Below, piece after piece: positions 29,409-62,331 of a DNA stretch of 64,000 nt. Both the position numbers and the translations under genes were made by a program. The DNA is from Loigolactobacillus coryniformis subsp. coryniformis KCTC 3167 = DSM 20001 (GTDB lineage Bacteria; Bacillota; Bacilli; Lactobacillales; Lactobacillaceae): assembly GCF_002706425.1 (NCBI RefSeq), contig NZ_CP017713.1:1488001-1552000 (forward strand), given 5' to 3'. The notes beneath the pieces were generated by a model that saw only the letters and a list, made by a program, of their open reading frames with translations, had not been told where the DNA came from and made no database searches. The stretch's first letter is position 1. Every line of letters begins with the position of its first letter.

Positions 29409-30152
29409 ATGATGAAAAAAAGTGCTTTATTAACGGTAGCTGCAATGAGCGGCCTATTACTTGGTGGCGTAACTTCGAGTGTTAGTGCAGCAGAGACGTC
29501 TAGTGCAGCAGAGACGTCTAGTGCAGCAGAGACGTCTAGTGCGACCTCAAAAGCCTCGGCTACCTTTACCAACGCTACTGACCCAACTACGCCCATCGAT
29601 CCAACTGATCCAACCGATCCAGAAAATCCTGGTGGTGGCCCTGGTACCGGTAATGCTGGACCATTATCGTTGGATTATGTTTCTGACTTAGATTTCGGGA
29701 CCCACGAGGTGCCAACCACGGATCAAATTTATGCAGCCAAAGATGATACTGATACCACTGGCAACGCGATTCCTAACTATGTTCAGGTGACTGATCAGCG
29801 TGCTGGTACACCTAAAGGATGGACGTTGCTGGTGACGCAGAATGCACAGTTTGCTAGTGCTAGTGATACAACTTTAGATGGTGCACAAATATCCTTTTCA
29901 GGCACCGCAATCACCGCTAATGCTTCAACTGCAGATGGCGCAGCCACACATGATGTGACTTTAACTCCAGGGACGTCAACTGTTATCATGGACGCCAGTG
30001 CAGGTAAAGGCTTTGGCACGTGGGCAGATAAATGGGGCGATACGGGTAGTTCTACTGCAAAATTAGCTGTACCAGTGGCCACCCATCCAGAAGCTGAGGC
30101 CTATACCGCAAACTTAACTTGGTCGTTGACTGATACACCAGCTAACACCTAA
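29409..30152 (+). CDS. WxL-domain cell-surface protein, short form
   Basis: 247 residues, SD AGGAG, ATG 29409. Signal peptide cleaved after VSA. Next come three AAETSS repeats, a Pro/Asp-rich hinge (about 57-80, PIDPTDPTDPENP) ending in a Gly run, then the WxL domain: DLDFGTHEV start, GWTL (W138) and TWSL (W238). This is the usual form of secreted WxL proteins. Third gene of the surface operon, 20 nt after the LPQTS gene. Confidence 0.93.
   Translation: MMKKSALLTVAAMSGLLLGGVTSSVSAAETSSAAETSSAAETSSATSKASATFTNATDPTTPIDPTDPTDPENPGGGPGTGNAGPLSLDYVSDLDFGTHEVPTTDQIYAAKDDTDTTGNAIPNYVQVTDQRAGTPKGWTLLVTQNAQFASASDTTLDGAQISFSGTAITANASTADGAATHDVTLTPGTSTVIMDASAGKGFGTWADKWGDTGSSTAKLAVPVATHPEAEAYTANLTWSLTDTPANT
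29484..29537 (+). repeat. Three perfect 18-bp tandem repeats in the short WxL gene
   Basis: The unit AGTGCAGCAGAGACGTCT occurs at 29484, 29502 and 29520 without mismatch and encodes AAETSS. Being a multiple of three, changes in copy number would alter linker length without a frameshift. Confidence 0.95.
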
Positions 30153-39659: not shown

Positions 39660-39710
39660 TATAATATTAAGTCGTAGCTCACTTTAATTGTGAAATAGGA
39701 GGATTTTAAA

Positions 39711-40211
39711 ATGACGATTGCGTTCATGTGGGCGGAGGCCCGCGACCATTTGATTGGGGCCAACGGACACTTGCCATGGCATTTGCCTGCCGATCTCCAA
39801 CATTTTAAGCAAACTACATTGAATCAAATTGTAGTGATGGGTCGGAAAACTTATGCTGGTATGGGCAAGCCACTACCAGGGCGTACCAATATCGTACTAA
39901 GTCAACAAGTGGATTATCCAGTGGCACCCGGCGTCATTTTATTAAATAACGTCGCTGCTGTTTTGGATTATGCATCCGCGCACCCACAGCAGGAGACAAT
40001 CATTATTGGCGGTGCACAAATTTTTGCTTTATTTAAAGAATATGTTACCCGCTTGTATGTTACTGAGATCGATGCTACTTTTAGCGGTGATACGTATATG
40101 CCAGCGCTAGATTGGTCAGCATTTAAACGGGTTGCTTTTCAAGCCGGTGAAATCGACACCAAAAATAAATATCCTTATTCATTTGCGACCTACCAACGCC
40201 GTGACGAATAA
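39711..40211 (+). CDS. dfrA: Dihydrofolate reductase
   Basis: Reduces dihydrofolate produced by ThyA. 166 residues, SD AGGAGG. N-terminal WAEARDHLIGANGHLPWHLPADL with the substrate-binding Asp, then VVMGRKTY for NADPH binding, IIIGGAQIF, and a C-terminal YPYSFATYQR. In many DHFRs the first segment reads W-A..; here MTIAFMWAEARDHLIG fits the lactobacillar form. Lies 51 bp after thyA, probably one operon. Confidence 0.95.
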   Translation: MTIAFMWAEARDHLIGANGHLPWHLPADLQHFKQTTLNQIVVMGRKTYAGMGKPLPGRTNIVLSQQVDYPVAPGVILLNNVAAVLDYASAHPQQETIIIGGAQIFALFKEYVTRLYVTEIDATFSGDTYMPALDWSAFKRVAFQAGEIDTKNKYPYSFATYQRRDE

Positions 40212-40367: not shown

Positions 40368-41213
40368 GTGGCAACTATAAAAATCGTAACCGATTCGTCG
40401 GTTCAACTAACCCCTGAAGAAGTTGAAAAATACAATATCACGGTCATTCCACTTTCAGTTATGATTGACGGTACCGTTTATATCGATGGCAAAACGATCA
40501 CACGTCCACGTTTTGTTGAATTAATGAATCAATCGACCGCGTTACCTAAAACTAGTCAACCGCCGATCGGTGAATTCATTGAATTATTTGATCAACTGGG
40601 TGCTGACGGTAGTCAGGTGATTGCTTTGCATATGACGGATGCCATCAGTGGTACCGTTAATACTGCGCGTCAAGCAGCTAACTTAAGTAAAAGTGATGTT
40701 ACGGTTATCGACACACGGGAAACTGATCGTGGCATGGCCTTTCAAGTCTTACGTGCAGCACAATTAGCACAATCTGGTGCCGATAAGGAAACTATTTTGA
40801 GCTCATTGGATCGTGTGCGCAACAGTACAAAGTTATACATGGCCGTCATGACCTTAGATAACATCGTTAAAGGTGGTCGAGTCAGCCGGGTTACTGGCTT
40901 GATCTCCAATATTTTGAACATGAAGGTTATTTTTGAAATGATCGATGGTGAGCTAAACGTCAGGACTAAGGGTCGCGGTACGAAAACCGTTAATAACTTT
41001 ATGCGTGATTTGATTGCTGACCTAGCAAGCAAACCAAATATTAAGAGTATCGGTATTTCACATGTAGCAGCGAATGATGTTATGGAAAAATTCAGAGCAG
41101 ACATTCATGCAGCATTGCCGAATGTACCTTTATTGATTCGTGATACTAGCCCAATTATTGCAACATATGCGGGTATGGGTGCTTTTGCGATTATGTATTA
41201 CACTGAAGATTAG
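40368..41213 (+). CDS. DegV-family fatty-acid-binding protein
   Basis: 281 residues from GTG 40368 (MATIKIVTDSSVQL); the frame is open from ATG 40332 and no SD is clear, so the start is uncertain. DegV fold: DSS near the N terminus, PPIGEFIELFDQL, HMTDAISGTVNTARQA, and a C-terminal domain ending MGAFAIMYY. In Firmicutes such proteins (FakB) present fatty acids to the kinase FakA for phospholipid synthesis; several paralogues per genome are common. No fakA nearby. Confidence 0.9.
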   Translation: MATIKIVTDSSVQLTPEEVEKYNITVIPLSVMIDGTVYIDGKTITRPRFVELMNQSTALPKTSQPPIGEFIELFDQLGADGSQVIALHMTDAISGTVNTARQAANLSKSDVTVIDTRETDRGMAFQVLRAAQLAQSGADKETILSSLDRVRNSTKLYMAVMTLDNIVKGGRVSRVTGLISNILNMKVIFEMIDGELNVRTKGRGTKTVNNFMRDLIADLASKPNIKSIGISHVAANDVMEKFRADIHAALPNVPLLIRDTSPIIATYAGMGAFAIMYYTED

Positions 41214-41232
41214 TTGATAATTTGTAGTAAAA

Positions 41233-41266
41233 TGGGGGCTGTGACGCGTTTGTCAAAGCCCTTTTA
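41233..41266 (+). terminator. Terminator after the DegV gene
   Basis: GGGCT and AGCCC close a hairpin with inner TGAC/GTCA; TTTT follows. A TATAAT (41280-41285) downstream of it could serve the next transcript, without a recognisable -35. Confidence 0.7.
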
Positions 41267-41300
41267 CTATAGTCAGACATATAATTATCGTTATTAGTAA

Positions 41301-41637
41301 GATAGAACCATGTTTCAACTTAGCGATTTTTGCCTTAGTTGAATGGACATCGCCACGAACATCAGAAAGTTTATTAGTGGTTTTGGCTAAGAAACTTAAC
41401 CTAATTTTAGTGAGATAGAGCCATGTTTCAACTTGGCGATTTTTGCCTTAGTTGAATGGACATCGCCACGAACATCAGAAAGTTTATTAGTGGTTTTGGC
41501 TAAGAAACTTAACTTATTTTAGTGAGATAGAGCCATGTTTCAACTTGGCGATTTTTGCCTTAGTTGAATGGACATCGCCACGAACATCAGAAAGTTTATT
41601 AGTGGTTTTGGCTAAGAAACTTAACTTATTTTAGTGA
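41301..41637 (+). repeat. Three tandem 112-bp leader repeats before the GDSL hydrolase gene
   Basis: Copies at 41301-41413 (113 bp), 41414-41525 and 41526-41637 (112 bp each). The next seven bases (41638-41644, GATAGAG) begin a fourth unit that turns into the SD GAGGAG of the hydrolase gene. Copies 2 and 3 are practically identical; copy 1 differs at a few bases. Each unit carries CCATGT, a hairpin TTCAACT/AGTTGAA with inner GGC/GCC, then TGGACATCG and AACATCAGAAA. No ORF runs through. A related single copy precedes hslU. Confidence 0.95.
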
Positions 41638-41655
41638 GATAGAGGAGTTTTAATA

Positions 41656-42531
41656 GTGCGCGGTTTAAAGATCATTAAAGAAATCGTGTTGGTGCTAGTC
41701 ATTATTGGGGTGGTCGCCGGTGGTATTTATGCCGGGCTGAACTATTTTGGGCCGGGAACCGTCAGTGAGCAAACTGTGAAACCCAAGGCGACACCAACGG
41801 TTAAAAAGAAAAAAAGTATCAAGCTTGTCGCGGTCGGCGATTCTTTGACTCAAGGAGTCGGTGATGGCATGAATCAAGGCGGCTACGTGGGGATCATTAA
41901 GAGTGAACTCACCACTAAACAAGCTGTGAAAGCAAGTACACAAAATTATGGCATCGCGGGTGAAACCAGCACTCAAATCGATCAACGCGTGCGGACTAAC
42001 AAAGACTTGCAGCAGGCGTTGAAAGATGCTGATGTGATCACAATGTCAGTTGGTGGCAACGATTTAATGGCCGTTTTACGTCAACAAATGTTGAACTTAA
42101 ATGAAGCCGACATCAAACGAGCACAAACGGCGTATACCACACATTTAGCTACGTTATTGCAAGACGTCCGTCAATATAACGATCAGGCGCCAATTTTTGT
42201 TTTTGGTATCTATAATCCGTTTTATCTGTATTTTCCTAAAATGACGAAAATGCAAGCTGCCGTTGAAAATTGGAACACTGCTTCAGCTAAAGTGATCAAG
42301 CAACAAAAGAATAGTTATTTGATCGATATTTGCGATCAACTATCTAAAGGCGAAAAATTGACGACACAGAAAAAGTCTAAAGCGGCTAGTGATTCTAGTA
42401 ATGAAAAAAATCAGTTAATTTTCACAGAAGATAATTTTCATCCCAATCATTCGGGATACCAAGTCATGGCCGACGATTTATATCAAGTCATGATGCAACA
42501 AAAGAATAAATGGCTAATAGATAGGAAATGA
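41656..42531 (+). CDS. Membrane-anchored SGNH/GDSL hydrolase (YpmR-like)
   Basis: 291 residues, GTG 41656 with GAGGAG 8 nt upstream. One N-terminal membrane span (about 7-28) with the catalytic domain outside. SGNH blocks: VAVGDSLTQGVGDG (Ser), a Gly in AGETSTQ, VGGNDLM (Asn) and DNFHPNHSGY (Asp-x-x-His). Probably a lipase/esterase of wall or membrane lipids; substrate unknown. A Lys/Ser-rich loop (about 240-255) interrupts the C-terminal part. Followed without gap by the YpmS gene, as in Bacillus. Its leader carries three structured repeats. Confidence 0.9.
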   Translation: MRGLKIIKEIVLVLVIIGVVAGGIYAGLNYFGPGTVSEQTVKPKATPTVKKKKSIKLVAVGDSLTQGVGDGMNQGGYVGIIKSELTTKQAVKASTQNYGIAGETSTQIDQRVRTNKDLQQALKDADVITMSVGGNDLMAVLRQQMLNLNEADIKRAQTAYTTHLATLLQDVRQYNDQAPIFVFGIYNPFYLYFPKMTKMQAAVENWNTASAKVIKQQKNSYLIDICDQLSKGEKLTTQKKSKAASDSSNEKNQLIFTEDNFHPNHSGYQVMADDLYQVMMQQKNKWLIDRK

Positions 42532-50161: not shown

Positions 50162-52068
50162 GTGCGCCCGGCATGGGCGTCAACTAGGTGGTGAAAGTCC
50201 ACTGCGGGCCGTAGTAGTCGGAACCGCTAGCCAAAGGCAAGGCCTTTATCGTGAGGTGAAGACTGAAGGAAGCCTGATGAGCAAAGTACTGCACCGATGA
50301 ACAAGAAGCAGCTATAAGGCCGGAAGTAACTGGATAAGGTGGCCAAACACACTGAAGTCCGATACTACCCGAAGTTACGACAGTAAAGCTGACGGTGACA
50401 TGGTACGAAAGTTGACGTTCTTACCCGGGGAGACCTGTACACACAATCCTGATTTTCTTAGGGAATACCCAAATGACAAGGAAATATGAGTTCAAAGCAA
50501 GTCAGAAATGGCTGGTTAAGTGTACAGGAGTCAGCCGAGGTCATAGTAGTGGGTAACCATGAAGGACCAAACAATAATAACTCATATTGAGACTGGAAGT
50601 GAAGACGATGCGAAAATCGCAGAAAACAGAACAAGCTGACCGCCAGCGGATGATAGGTCTGGAAGACCAAAGACAAACTGGGGCGCGTAGTATCGCCTCC
50701 GGTGAAGGAGAAAAGATGAGTGGCACTCAGTTTCAAGCATTAGTTTTGGCCCGCAACAACCTGAATTTGGCTTATCAACGTGTGGTCAGGAACAAAGGGG
50801 CGGCCGGAGTTGACGGTATGACCGTTGATGAATTGAAACCGTACCTGAAAGTACATCGCGAAGAATTACTCGCAGAATTGGCCAATGGGACTTATAAACC
50901 GGCACCAGTCAAGCAAGTCTCAATTCCAAAGCCCAACGGTGGAACGCGTAAGCTTGGCATTCCGACCGTGATCGACCGGCTAGTCCAGCAGGCCGTGGCC
51001 CAGGTCCTTTCGCCGATATATGAACAGATCTTCGCCAATAATAGTTTTGGTTTTCGACCCCAACGCAGTGCACATGACGCAGTTCAACAGGTCGTTCAGC
51101 TAGATAATGCGGGTTATCACTATGTGGTTGATCTGGATTTGAAGGCCTACTTCGATACGGTTAATCATGACATGCTTATGAAGTTTCTCAAGCAGCGAAT
51201 TAGTGACCGCTGGATACTACGGCTCATTCGCCGTTTTCTGACTAGTGGCACCATGAATGGGCAATTGTTTGAACGCAGTGAGAAAGGCACACCGCAAGGC
51301 GGGCCGATCTCGCCACTGTTAGCGAATATTTATCTCAACGAATTCGACCAAGAACTAGCTAGGCGCGGTCATGAATTTGACCGTTACGCCGATGACTGCA
51401 ATATCTTTGTTAAAAGTCCACGCGCGGGCCAACGAGTCCTCGCTAGTGTGACTCGTTTTCTCGAGCATGAGTTAAAACTCACGCTCAATCAGGAAAAAAC
51501 ACAAGTGGTCGCCACCAACAGAATGAAGTTCTTAGGGTTTACGTTGGGCCACACTAAAGGCAGGGCTTTTCCCTATCCGGTGTGGTCAGCGAAGCAGCGA
51601 GTTAAACAAGCATTGAGGCGGCTGACTAAGCGTAATCGTGGTGTATCCGAAGACCAAATAATGGCAGAGATTCGTCAAAAGATGCGCGGTTGGTTGCAGT
51701 ATTACAGCTTGGGTAGAATGAAGCGGTTCATCACGGAATTAGATGCGTGGCTGCGGTCACGTATTCGCCAGTACATTTGGAAACAATGGAAGAAAGCCAA
51801 AACTAGAGAGAACAACTTGAGCGGATTAGGATTTACGAAAGATGAAGCTAAGCTATCCGCTAACACGCGTAAAGGGTACTGGCGGACAGCGCATAGTAAA
51901 ACGCTGTGCCGTACCCTAACTAACAAAGAGCTGGAACGTCGTGGACTCATTAACTTGAGTCAGACGCTCCAGCAAATTCAGAGTGCTTAAATTATTGAAC
52001 CGCCGTATACGGAACCGTACGTACGGTGGTGTGAGAGGACGGTAACTTACAATTACCTCCTACTCGAT
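50162..52068 (+). mobile_element. Group II intron with maturase gene, about 1.9 kb
   Basis: 5' boundary GTGCGCCCGGCATGGGCG, a typical group II start; catalytic domain V region near 51998-52042 (GCCGTATACGGAACCG, then GTACGTACGGT and GGTGTGAGAGGACGG); 3' end CTCCTACTCGAT at 52068. The end is set by family pattern, not by comparison with an empty site. It stands 1 bp after the T-run of a terminator, the kind of target preferred by group IIC introns. The ORF sits in domain IV. Confidence 0.87.
50608..51990 (+). CDS. ltrA: Group II intron reverse transcriptase/maturase
   Basis: 460 residues from ATG 50608 (MRKSQKTEQADRQ); ATG 50716 behind AAGGAG would give a 424-residue form that starts at MSGTQF. 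RT domain with GAAGVDGMTVDEL, NGGTRKLGIPTVIDR, SFGFRPQRSAHDA, the catalytic RYADDCNIF (about residue 270) and KFLGFTLG; then the maturase X domain (about 330-430, WLQYYSLG). No HNH endonuclease domain follows. Splices the intron RNA and makes its cDNA at new sites. Confidence 0.93.
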   Translation: MRKSQKTEQADRQRMIGLEDQRQTGARSIASGEGEKMSGTQFQALVLARNNLNLAYQRVVRNKGAAGVDGMTVDELKPYLKVHREELLAELANGTYKPAPVKQVSIPKPNGGTRKLGIPTVIDRLVQQAVAQVLSPIYEQIFANNSFGFRPQRSAHDAVQQVVQLDNAGYHYVVDLDLKAYFDTVNHDMLMKFLKQRISDRWILRLIRRFLTSGTMNGQLFERSEKGTPQGGPISPLLANIYLNEFDQELARRGHEFDRYADDCNIFVKSPRAGQRVLASVTRFLEHELKLTLNQEKTQVVATNRMKFLGFTLGHTKGRAFPYPVWSAKQRVKQALRRLTKRNRGVSEDQIMAEIRQKMRGWLQYYSLGRMKRFITELDAWLRSRIRQYIWKQWKKAKTRENNLSGLGFTKDEAKLSANTRKGYWRTAHSKTLCRTLTNKELERRGLINLSQTLQQIQSA

Positions 52069-59918: not shown

Positions 59919-60464
59919 ATGACAGGTATAAAATTTGAAGCAACAACGATCTGCGCAGTACAGCACAATGGCCATGCGGCAATGGCTGGTGACGGCCAGG
60001 TGACCATGGGCGAAAAAGTAATTATGAAGGGTACTGCCAAAAAAGTGCGTCGTATCTATAACGATGAAGTTGTTGTCGGTTTTGCTGGCAGTGTTGCCGA
60101 CGCCTTTAATCTAGAAGAGCGTTTTGAAAAGAAACTCAATGAATATAGCGGTAATTTATCTCGTGCGGCCGTTGAATTAGCTCAAGACTGGCGTGCTGAT
60201 CAAACTTTGCAGAAGTTGGAAGCCTTGTTGATCGTGATGAATAAAGATCAATTATTGATGGTTTCTGGTAATGGCGAAGTGATCGAACCAGATGATAATG
60301 TTTTAGCCATCGGTTCAGGCGGTAACTATGCATTAGCAGCCGCTAAAGCCTTAACTACCAATGCTAAAGACATGAGTGCACATGATATTGCTCACGCCGC
60401 AATCAGCATCGCCGGAGACATTGATATTTTCACTAACCATAATATTATTGTTGAAGATCTATAA
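59919..60464 (+). CDS. hslV: HslV peptidase subunit of the HslUV protease (CodW type)
   Basis: Proteasome-like N-terminal-nucleophile peptidase; works with the HslU ATPase. 181 residues, SD AAAGGAG. The usual E. coli-type protein starts MTTIV, so that Thr is exposed after Met removal; here [16 protein letters not shown] has an eight-residue extension before the TT and Thr at position 2, recalling Bacillus CodW with its extended, Ser-starting N terminus. GDGQVTMG and [10 protein letters not shown] follow. The TAA stop (60462-60464) lies within the duplicated target site of an IS1380-family element, which leaves the protein intact. Confidence 0.95.
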
Positions 60465-60465
60465 A

Positions 60466-62162
60466 CCTGAATTATGCATATGCATCAAATTGATTGGCCA
60501 AATTATCAGTTTTACGTAATTTCTCTATATTCACGACTTGGGCTAGTCATGACTAGCCAAGTTTGACTTAATTTAGTTAGTTTGATTAGTTTTCATACTT
60601 GATCGCGTCAAAAAAGTAGCCACTAATCCCTTGGTCAAACACAATAATTTTAAAAAATTTTAAAAGTAACTGCGCTATTTTCTTAGTTGGTCACTAAGGG
60701 GCTTAACGTGTGAATGTTAGCTAATAAGGCTTCGATCTGCTGGCTAAAGACGTTGCTTTGCGCCAGATGAATGATTATTTTTCCGGCGTGACGGGCTAGT
60801 TTTCCAGCAACATGAAAGATTTGAAAGCGTAGTGTACTAATGGTCGTGTTGCGCTGCTCTTTTGGTAAGGCCATTAACTTCATCAAGGCAATCAAGTTAT
60901 AGGCAATGCCGCTGATAGTTGCTCGCGCGGCATTGGTAGTAAAGGTGTGGCTATTCGTCTTATCCATAAAAAAGCCGGCTTTACTTTCTTTGATCAGGTT
61001 TTCCATGGCCCCACGCTTTTGATAGGCTAAGTACAATAATTTGACCCCGGCTTCAGTCATATTAGTGACCACATATTGCCGTTCAAAGAATAGTTCGCCT
61101 ACTTGATGCGTCGATTTTACTAGGACGCGCCGATCAATCGACCAGCTCTTGGCCGCGTAGTTGAATTCACCATAGATGACCGAATTCTGATCAAAATGCT
61201 TGGGCACTACTGGTGTGAATTCATCAGCTAGTTGGTCTAAAGCGGCGTTTCGCTTCAGGCGGATCACATATTTTACATCATAAAATTCGCAGAGCGTATA
61301 AAGCTCAGGCGTCGCAAAACCACTATCACCGCGTAAAATCAACTGAACATCAAACGGCAATTCGCAAAAAGCCGCAAAGATCGGGGCTAAGAATTCTTTG
61401 ACACCAGTGCTGGTGTACTGATTGCCTGGACGTTGCTTGATTCCTAAAAGCAAATTCAGCTGCGCGATATAGGCCACTAGCGGATGGAAACCAGTAACCC
61501 CATAATGCGCATTGAAACTAGCAGCTTCTTGATGACCAAAGGTATCACAATGCGTCGAATCAACATCAAGCATGACCGTGTCAATATGGTTAGTCCTGAT
61601 ATAATCGAGCGCCAAGGTTAAAATCAAACGGTTCAAGTGCAGAACATCATCACAAGTTAGCGCACTTAAAAAACGAGAAATAGTCGGTTGGGGTGCTAAA
61701 TCAGTCGTCCCATGGACCTGTTTCATGACTGGGTCGTGTTGTAGCGCGTCGGCCGCGACATCATTGCCGTAACCGGCAATATTCAGTTCCAGCATTTGAT
61801 TGAGTAAGCTAGTTTTAGAATAATGAGGGCCAATACGTTTTTCGCTTAATTGTGCCGCCGCTTGATCAATAGTTTGGTCAAGACCAGCTGCGTGCTTAAA
61901 TTCGGCGTAAAACAACAGGCCTGCGTTATTTGAAAGTTGAACATCATCAGTCTTAATTTTGATTTTAGGGTTGAATCGCAGTTGGGTTTCGTGTAAGTTA
62001 GTCATGAGGCATCTCCTGTGTTCGTTATTGTTTGGTCGCTATAACAATAACACGGAAGGTGCTTTTTTGGTACACCATTTTGGTGAAACCCTCAATCAAA
62101 GGTAAAACGATGGTGTAGCAGCATTCTCGTTAAGGTTTAGGAAAAGATATGCATAATTCAGG
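60466..62162 (-). mobile_element. IS1380-family insertion sequence, complete, 1697 bp
   Basis: Perfect 16-bp terminal inverted repeats: CCTGAATTATGCATAT at 60466-60481 and its complement at 62147-62162. Flanked by the 5-bp direct repeat ATAAA (60461-60465 and 62163-62167). Size, CC ends and short duplication fit IS1380. It separates hslV from hslU, which are normally adjacent. Confidence 0.92.
60683..62005 (-). CDS. IS1380-family transposase
   Basis: 440 residues, ATG 62005; the minus-strand SD AGGAGATG is close upstream. IS1380-type DDE features: DTVMLDVDSTHCDTFG (first Asp), LILRGDSGFATPEL (second Asp) and the Glu region KRGAMENLIKESKAGF; SNNAGLLFYAEF is typical of the N terminus. No internal stop, so probably active. 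Opposite to the host genes. Confidence 0.93.
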   Translation of the reverse strand: MTNLHETQLRFNPKIKIKTDDVQLSNNAGLLFYAEFKHAAGLDQTIDQAAAQLSEKRIGPHYSKTSLLNQMLELNIAGYGNDVAADALQHDPVMKQVHGTTDLAPQPTISRFLSALTCDDVLHLNRLILTLALDYIRTNHIDTVMLDVDSTHCDTFGHQEAASFNAHYGVTGFHPLVAYIAQLNLLLGIKQRPGNQYTSTGVKEFLAPIFAAFCELPFDVQLILRGDSGFATPELYTLCEFYDVKYVIRLKRNAALDQLADEFTPVVPKHFDQNSVIYGEFNYAAKSWSIDRRVLVKSTHQVGELFFERQYVVTNMTEAGVKLLYLAYQKRGAMENLIKESKAGFFMDKTNSHTFTTNAARATISGIAYNLIALMKLMALPKEQRNTTISTLRFQIFHVAGKLARHAGKIIIHLAQSNVFSQQIEALLANIHTLSPLVTN

Positions 62163-62188: not shown

Positions 62189-62318
62189 TATAAAATACCC
62201 ATGTATTGTGGCGTAGAGCCATGTTTCTTGCGGTACGGTCTTTACCACAAGAATGGTCATCGTCCGTAACATCAGAAATTTTTGGTACAAAAAATAACCA
62301 CTATTGTGGAGTAGAGAT
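62189..62318 (+). promoter_or_regulatory. Structured leader of hslU, related to the 112-bp repeats
   Basis: A copy of the leader element: GTAGAG-CCATGT, hairpin TTCTTG (62225-62230)/CAAGAA (62248-62253) with inner GGT/ACC, then TGGTCATCG and AACATCAGAAA. The flank TATTGTGGCGTAGAG (62204-62218) is repeated after it as TATTGTGGAGTAGAG (62302-62316), just before the SD. CCAC-TATT-GTGG (62299-62310) is a further small hairpin. Confidence 0.7.
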
Positions 62319-62331
62319 AAGGAGTTTACCT

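What the first reader, a model, noticed from the sequence alone, without database searches (positions are those of the whole stretch)
41301..41655. Triple tandem 112-bp structured leader before a GDSL hydrolase gene
Seen: three near-identical 112-113-bp units with no coding capacity, ending in a fourth unit start that becomes the SD. Each can fold into TTCAACT/AGTTGAA with GGC/GCC inside and CCA/TGG outside across a bulge. The hairpin-loop segment GGCGAT is also complementary to ATCGCC just 3', so a pseudoknot or switch is possible. A related single copy precedes hslU. Tandem cis-regulatory RNAs (as in glycine or T-box tandems) are known but three copies are rare; alternatively these are tandem promoters. 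I recognise no named family.
Basis: partly seen in the sequence, partly recalled or inferred. Interest (0 to 1): 0.82.

Follow-up and report, generated by a model that had tools for sequence, protein, structure and literature searches.

The report
Folding repeats inserted before ribosome-binding sites
The triple repeat is one of at least about 130 copies, in this bacterium's chromosome, of a folding repeat that mostly sits directly in front of the ribosome-binding site of unrelated housekeeping genes, apparently arriving there by insertion and then multiplying in tandem.

Summary
In detail: three near-identical 112-113-bp units fill 41291-41644, and their last half-unit runs into the Shine-Dalgarno (SD) of a GDSL-hydrolase gene; a diverged single copy precedes hslU. 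The reading changes. This is a dispersed family: 140 covariance-model hits at E<=1 in the genome (a capped list), 130 kept, in 75 loci; 62 of 75 end 20-40 nt before a start codon on the same strand (random points 348 of 3000; antisense 1 of 75). The genes are unrelated (gyrB, murF, prfA, era, mutS, typA), so a ligand-specific riboswitch regulon is unlikely. All 8 genomes of the genus have hits, and one genome of another Lactobacillaceae genus repeats the SD-adjacent tandem layout. At four genes compared, most relatives lack the unit but keep an SD, so the repeat appears to insert immediately 5' of it. The fold is well supported: 17 of 23 pairs change on both sides, including a J-linker pair around hairpin 1. 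The proposed loop pseudoknot is not supported. No Rfam match. Best reading: a BOX-like, probably mobile, structured leader repeat that docks at ribosome-binding sites. How it moves and what it does to translation are unproven.

The parts
41291..41307 (+). first J spacer (diverged), 5' edge of the array
   Evidence: sequence; resembles the J at 41401-41420 and 41625-41644
41308..41346 (+). unit 1 hairpin 1, CCA..TTCAACT / AGTTGAA..TGG
   Evidence: family covariation
41347..41366 (+). unit 1 linker ACATCG..AACATCA; 41350 and 41351 pair with 41306 and 41305 of J
   Evidence: J-2:k4 covariation; sequence
41367..41397 (+). unit 1 hairpin 2, AAGTTTATTAG / CTAAGAAACTT (one mismatch)
41401..41420 (+). 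second J spacer CTAATTTTAGTGAGATAGAG
   Evidence: family D2
41421..41459 (+). unit 2 hairpin 1
41480..41510 (+). unit 2 hairpin 2
   Evidence: sequence, family; not the stem in the single-sequence minimum-energy fold
41513..41532 (+). third J spacer
41533..41571 (+). unit 3 hairpin 1
41592..41622 (+). unit 3 hairpin 2
   Evidence: sequence, family
41625..41644 (+). last J spacer, merging into the SD
41643..41647 (+). Shine-Dalgarno AGGAG of the GDSL gene
   Evidence: sequence; orthologous unfilled sites keep an AAGGAG-type SD
41656..42531 (+). GDSL/SGNH hydrolase gene (GTG start)
   Evidence: Pfam PF13472, E 4.8e-23
62202..62218 (+). 5' J spacer of the single copy before hslU
   Evidence: sequence
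62219..62256 (+). hslU copy hairpin 1, type B (TTCTTG/CAAGAA)
62278..62295 (+). hslU copy hairpin 2
   Evidence: sequence, read by eye
62300..62316 (+). 3' J spacer before the hslU SD (62319-62324); ATG 62332
   Evidence: hslU named
39682..39699 (+). solitary J spacer directly before the SD and ATG (39711) of the DHFR-like gene (name recalled), without recognisable hairpins
   Evidence: no model match there

Best explanation
A dispersed, structured leader repeat. One unit is J - hairpin 1 - linker - hairpin 2 - J. SHOWN: at least about 130 copies in this genome, mostly sense-oriented with the 3' J touching the SD of an unrelated gene; relatives lack it at the same gene but keep an SD; the fold covaries; the same SD-docked tandem form occurs in a genome of a second genus. 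INFERRED: the repeat spreads by insertion immediately 5' of SDs (donor enzyme unknown); J copies act as short direct repeats, so unequal recombination makes arrays of 1-5 units and leaves solitary J's; being transcribed, the array becomes part of the 5' UTR, folds into self-contained hairpins and leaves the SD usable, so insertion is tolerated and perhaps mildly useful for translation or mRNA stability. It is not tuned to one metabolite.
For: 140 model hits at E<=1 in the own genome, 150 of 2756 candidates scored, so a lower bound; 130 used, 77 arrays, 75 loci after merging; 62 of 75 have a start codon 20-40 nt downstream on the same strand, 60 of them with an SD-like word, against 348 and 82 of 3000 random points, 7-20 of 74-75 shifted points and 1 of 75 antisense. 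J 16-mer with up to 2 mismatches: 83 sites, reversed-pattern control 0; of 18 fetched sites outside the 130 hits, 17 stand 4-20 nt before a start, antisense 1, shifted 0-7. Filled and unfilled orthologous sites at four genes. Genes unrelated. Fold: 96.2% of cells paired, 17 of 23 pairs with two-sided changes, covariation score 0.364 against 0.110, 0 of 500 shuffles. Right array edge at the J end in 30 of 38 periodic arrays, left edge scattered over the unit (counted by eye). Composite copies with one type inside hairpin 1 of another (L097, L099, L126, by eye). Second genus G176: 9 of 11 rows SD-adjacent. SD unpaired probability 0.478 with the native unit, 0.414 with shuffled upstream sequence, higher in 42 of 62.
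Against: No transposase is tied to it: no Y1_Tnp (RAYT/IS200) match in the own genome; no terminal inverted repeats or target duplication noticed, but not searched systematically. Gain was not polarised on a species tree, so loss in several relatives is possible. No strain-level polymorphism was tested. Site sharing between some species (typA in G000 and L086 of G003; yidC and prfA in G000 and G004) shows part of the set is old. 13 of 75 loci failed the start-codon test; 2 of these pass on reading beyond a long unit, about 8 look like the composite class II, 3 (260167, 2042697, 2448606) are unexplained. The SD-accessibility difference is small. No expression data.
Confidence: 0.62

Rival explanations
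1. A dedicated global riboregulator: the unit binds a protein or a small molecule and sets translation of about 60 genes; tandem copies sharpen the response.
For: Sense orientation and SD contact, strong covariation including the J-linker pair, same layout in another genus, tandem copies.
Against: Genes share no pathway; same gene filled or unfilled in sister species; two hairpin-1 types are used interchangeably, also at the same gene (prfA: type B in G000, type A in G004); related modules in other genomes lie in composites that are mostly not before a start codon.
Confidence: 0.22
2. An old vertical leader element of the family, now being lost gene by gene; no mobility.
For: Some sites are shared between species; several J sites carry degenerate units upstream (L161, L166, L169, L172, by eye), and the gene at 862274 has only a J here but a full unit in G002 (L087).
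Against: Only 15 of 201 Lactobacillaceae genomes have hits, a patchy spread; unfilled hslU and prfA sites show no recognisable unit (by eye); composite copies that look like nested insertions exist.
Confidence: 0.1
3. A DNA-level REP/REPIN-type repeat spread by a RAYT (Y1) transposase, whose hairpins matter as single-stranded DNA, not RNA.
For: Hairpins, no obvious inverted ends, tandem copies; covariation cannot by itself tell RNA from single-stranded DNA, and the + strand excess of wobble pairs is small.
Against: No Y1_Tnp match in the own genome while the same search rings in 5 of 14 control genomes (sister genomes not searched); position at SDs in sense orientation is not the REP pattern (recalled).
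Confidence: 0.04
4. Tandem promoters.
For: Promoter-like matches on the minus strand in two units.
Against: None on the + strand; 2 found, 1.7 expected from shuffles; family conservation follows base pairs.
Confidence: 0.02

Closest known systems
BOX elements of Streptococcus pneumoniae (boxA-boxB(n)-boxC)
   Same: Short non-coding interspersed repeat, modular with tandem inner units, RNA-type stem-loops, clustering and nested insertion, nearly absent from most relatives (PMC3049150: abstract and passages seen; PMC10969869: passages seen).
   Different: BOX is over-represented between convergent genes (70 upstream of a CDS, 16 convergent; same paper); here 62 of 75 loci touch an SD in sense orientation. 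The same J flanks the units instead of different boxA/boxC ends. Sequence relation to BOX was not tested.
REP/REPIN elements with RAYT transposases
   Same: Dispersed hairpin repeats, tandem clusters (recalled).
   Different: No Y1_Tnp in this genome; SD-adjacent sense placement. PMC3116915 seen only in a search listing.
Tandem riboswitches (glycine, T-box tandems)
   Same: Tandem structured units in a 5' leader (recalled).
   Different: Many unrelated genes, 1-5 copies, no Rfam match to this stretch even at E<=5.
Miniature inverted-repeat elements (MITEs)
   Same: Non-autonomous, small, dispersed.
   Different: No terminal inverted repeats or target duplications noticed at the edges read by eye; no systematic search.

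Membership tests
BOX element (S. pneumoniae) | boxA and boxC ends with boxB repeats between them | tested here: not met
   Arrays are repeats of one J-hp1-hp2 unit from edge to edge; sequence comparison with boxA/B/C itself was not run
BOX element (S. pneumoniae) | multi-copy, dispersed, modular, tandem unit, structured RNA | tested here: met
REP/REPIN | mobilised by a RAYT (Y1_Tnp) in the genome | tested here: not met
   0 matches to PF01797 in the own genome; controls ring in 5 of 14; sister genomes not searched
MITE | terminal inverted repeats and target-site duplication | tested here: inconclusive
   none noticed at edges read by eye; no systematic search
Known Rfam family | covariance-model match | tested here: not met
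   window, gathering: 3 matches, all group II intron models; 41200-41700, E<=5: none
Ligand-binding riboswitch | genes downstream share a pathway | tested here: not met
   39 different downstream proteins scanned (40 slots, the GDSL protein twice): replication, wall, translation, repair, amino acids, redox, transport; the remaining downstream genes were not scanned
Ligand-binding riboswitch | ligand-dependent structural switch | not testable with these tools
   needs in-line probing or reporter assays
5' leader RNA element | conserved secondary structure with compensatory changes | tested here: met
   17 of 23 pairs; J-2:k4 81 of 92 Watson-Crick against shuffle mean 34.3, max 50; class I only 52 of 57 against 34.9, max 45
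5' leader RNA element | transcribed as part of the mRNA | not testable with these tools
   no expression data
Pseudoknotted leader RNA | loop 1 pairs with the linker | tested here: not met

The most novel reading that the evidence does not exclude
A mobile genetic element that specifically homes to ribosome-binding sites: it inserts in sense orientation just 5' of the SD, carries a spacer (J) that rebuilds an extended SD, and so colonises the leaders of dozens of essential genes without harm, then tunes their translation by tandem copy number through J-J recombination.
Probability: 0.3. Interest if true: 0.85.

Novelty: new variant of a known kind. Interest (0 to 1): 0.62.

Why it matters
Small bacterial repeats are usually thought to be tolerated between or after genes. 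One that sits mostly at ribosome-binding sites of housekeeping genes, in sense, and in tandem, would be a natural experiment on how structured leaders affect translation, and a case where 'mobile repeat' and 'leader RNA' are the same thing. Filled and unfilled alleles of the same gene in sister species make the effect directly testable. It also warns that covariance searches can report a multi-copy repeat as a regulon.

Tried and rejected
Pseudoknot loop:linker: rejected. Tandem promoters: rejected. Rfam families: three matches at gathering in the window, all group II intron, none at E<=5 for 41200-41700. Short uORF ATG TTT CAA.. TGA in type-A units: rejected by reading, since type-B units lack that stop (sequences). 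RAYT mobilisation: no Y1_Tnp in the own genome. Plasmid or phage carriage: blastn of one 112-base unit, E<=1e-3, no match in either collection. Literature: the listings (0 papers; 5; 20 of 81 listed; 12 of 94; 3; 8; 7) show no paper on this repeat by title or start of abstract; only PMC3049150 (abstract, passages) and PMC10969869 (passages) were opened.

Weak points. The hairpin-2 arm test used stems chosen by the same search, so its contrast (95.7% own, 48.7% re-dealt; 87.5% when re-dealt within the same loop-proximal triplet) is partly circular. Alignment A4 (137 matches from 78 sources that I picked; loci with weak or class II matches partly left out; 12 rows built the model) is fitted to the model. 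The J-2:k4 pair was first noticed by eye and is the top pair outside hairpin 2 in the scan, but related arrays are not independent. Wobble pairs favour the + strand (82 against 19 in hairpin 2; 15 against 4 without the loop-proximal and outermost pairs), a small excess; hairpin 1 gives only 62 against 47. Single-sequence folds are only modestly stable: z -2.23, -1.03 and -1.85 for the three units, while the reverse strand of one unit gives -4.02, which speaks against a simple RNA-stability argument. Ten of 140 own hits (E above 0.09) were dropped. One of the 62 SD-adjacent loci (2882976) is a class II copy with a doubtful 66-aa ORF. Of the 18 J sites, at least four carry degenerate units and two lie beside dropped weak hits, so not all are solitary. 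G005 has only weak hits (best E 7.4e-4), not read. Species reads: G005 prfA and G007 hslU could not be read.

Full report
What is there. The window lies at 1488001-1552000 of a 2.95-Mb single-contig genome of, most likely, the genus Loigolactobacillus: the protein of the gene behind the array finds six relatives in genome contigs, all Loigolactobacillus (the own species is probably L. coryniformis, by exclusion, which is recall). Between a degV-like gene (name recalled; ends 41213) and the GDSL-hydrolase gene (GTG 41656; Pfam PF13472) stand three 112-113-bp units. Each unit holds hairpin 1 (39 nt), a linker (ACATCG..AACATCA), hairpin 2 (31 nt) and a 20-nt spacer, J, whose end TAGAG runs either into the next unit (TAGAGCC) or into the SD (TAGAGGAG).

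It is a family. A blast of the array on its own genome gave 46 matches. A covariance model from 12 type-A units (A2, model R1) gave 140 hits at E<=1 (only 150 of 2756 candidates were scored, so this is a lower bound); 130 (E<0.09) were carried on, in 77 arrays of 1-5 units. The model finds four matches in the window, three of them here and the fourth at hslU. Two main hairpin-1 types exist: A (TTCAACT/AGTTGAA) and B (TTCTTG/CAAGAA). Longer units carry extra inserts in the hairpin-1 loop or the linker, one insert being seen in both orientations (by eye).

Where it sits. After merging into 75 loci, 62 have a start codon of an ORF of 60 aa or more 20-40 nt downstream on the same strand. Controls with the same rule: 348 of 3000 random points, 7 to 20 of 74-75 points shifted by 400-800 nt along the same strand, 1 of 75 reading antisense from the other edge; if an SD-like word is also asked for, 60 of 75 against 82 of 3000, 2 to 8, and 0. 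Of the 13 others, two (1018847, 1462026) reach a start beyond a long unit, about eight look like a composite form, class II, that ends GTAGTAG and is not before genes, and three (260167, 2042697, 2448606) are unexplained. J occurs outside the kept hits too: 83 sites within two mismatches, 0 for the reversed pattern; of 18 fetched, 17 stand 4-20 nt before a start (antisense 1; shifted 0-7). Some of these carry degenerate units upstream, others no recognisable hairpin; one further J lies in this window before the DHFR-like gene at 39711. The genes have nothing obvious in common: gyrB, a PPDK/PEP-synthase regulator, argJ, ornithine carbamoyltransferase, murF, truA, dnaX, yabA-like, prfA, proA, mraY, typA, rbfA, phoH-like, era, yidC, rsfS, nrdR, trxA, mutS, trxB, serC, rmlD, nth, an ABC-F-like ATPase and others (39 different proteins; the rest not scanned).

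Filled and unfilled sites. GDSL gene, six named relatives: a truncated unit in L. binensis (26 bits), none directly before the gene in the other five (two of these, L092 and L093, have a class II-like match elsewhere in the locus); all six keep AAGGAG or AGAGGAG. prfA: arrays in G000 and G004 (different hairpin types); none recognisable in G001, G002, G003, G006, G007; G005 not read. era: array in G000; none in G001, G002, G003, G005, G006, G007; G004 has another repeat with an antisense copy inside. hslU: one unit in G000; none recognisable in G001-G006; G007 not read (by eye). At prfA the unfilled relative reads CTTAAG-AAAGGAAATTAGTCATG and the filled one GAAGTAG-AAAGGAAACTAATCATG: the junction is the SD. 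Within periodic arrays the right edge is at the J end in 30 of 38 (3 of 41 arrays tested had no usable period; in the other 8 the match stopped inside a unit, probably at an indel), while the left edge is spread over J, hairpins and linker (counted by eye). Gain is the simpler reading for hslU and era, but no species tree was used.

Fold. On 128 distinct aligned units from 78 chosen sources, 96.2% of cells pair, 17 of 23 pairs have changes on both sides, covariation score 0.364 against 0.110, with 0 of 500 shuffles reaching any of the five measures; sliding partners by 1-3 columns drops pairing to 27-45%. A pair between J position -2 and linker position 4, noticed by eye, is the strongest pair outside hairpin 2 in a mutual-information scan (AT 43, TA 24, GC 13 of 92 arrays) and is Watson-Crick in 81 of 92 against a shuffle mean of 34.3 and maximum of 50; within class I, 52 of 57 against 34.9 and 45. 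So J and the linker probably clamp hairpin 1, though the neighbouring pair hardly varies. The loop pseudoknot is not supported. Against a simple RNA reading: single-unit folds are only modestly stable (z -2.23, -1.03, -1.85; reverse strand -4.02), and the + strand excess of wobbles is small.

Spread. R1 hits at E<=1e-3 occur in 15 of 201 Lactobacillaceae genomes, 5 of 40 genera: all 8 of the own genus and 7 others (stricter filters, 20 candidates scored per genome). G005 of the own genus has only weak hits. In G176, of another genus, 9 of 11 rows examined end directly before a start; G021 of that same genus has none. In the remaining genomes the matches shown are mostly class II-like composites, and some (G064, G034) may be other hairpins (19 of the 30 loci read). 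No match of one unit on plasmids or phages.

How it most likely works. Shown: a structured repeat, docked at SDs, variable between species. Inferred: insertion 5' of the SD, tandem change by recombination between J's (the gene at 862274 has only a J here and a full unit in G002), co-transcription, and a mild effect on translation. The only functional hint is computational: the SD is unpaired with probability 0.478 with the native unit and 0.414 with a shuffled one (42 of 62 higher). That J's TAGA(AAGGAG) end extends complementarity to the 16S rRNA tail is recalled, not tested.

What is known. The nearest published kind that I saw is the pneumococcal BOX repeat, called parasitic there and enriched between convergent genes (PMC3049150, abstract and passages). 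The present family differs in its SD docking. The paper searches made here (some listings capped) showed no paper on it.

Noticed in passing
window 60683-62005 (-): A 440-aa transposase-like ORF (recalled look, no family search) lies between an hslV-like gene (59919-60464, name recalled) and hslU (62332); in the relatives read the same upstream gene end stands close before hslU.
   Followed up: partly
window 29483-29542: An 18-bp tandem repeat, 3.3 perfect copies, inside a 247-aa ORF (29409-30152), encoding a repeated SSAAET stretch.
   Followed up: no
window 50245-52068: Group II intron (three matches to Rfam group II models).
   Followed up: no
L146 about 1100-1510 (era upstream, G004): A different tandem repeat whose units end AACAGGAG just before the era start, with an antisense copy of the present hairpin unit inside it: perhaps a second SD-docked repeat family (by eye).
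   Followed up: partly
L219 1057-1936 (G079): Five copies of a 197-bp composite repeat containing the hairpin unit, in another genus, not clearly before a gene.
   Followed up: no
L114-L132 (G006, G007, G001): Class II composite (..TTGCCATG..GTAGTAGCTAC..) dispersed in these genomes, mostly without a start codon close behind; T at J-2 is matched by A in the linker in nearly all, the third state of the J-linker pair.
   Followed up: partly
L182 (G095) and G000 C1:2910044: Almost identical copies of one diverged unit in two genera, near a polysaccharide-type gene in the own genome (recalled): possible transfer of a gene cluster.
   Followed up: no
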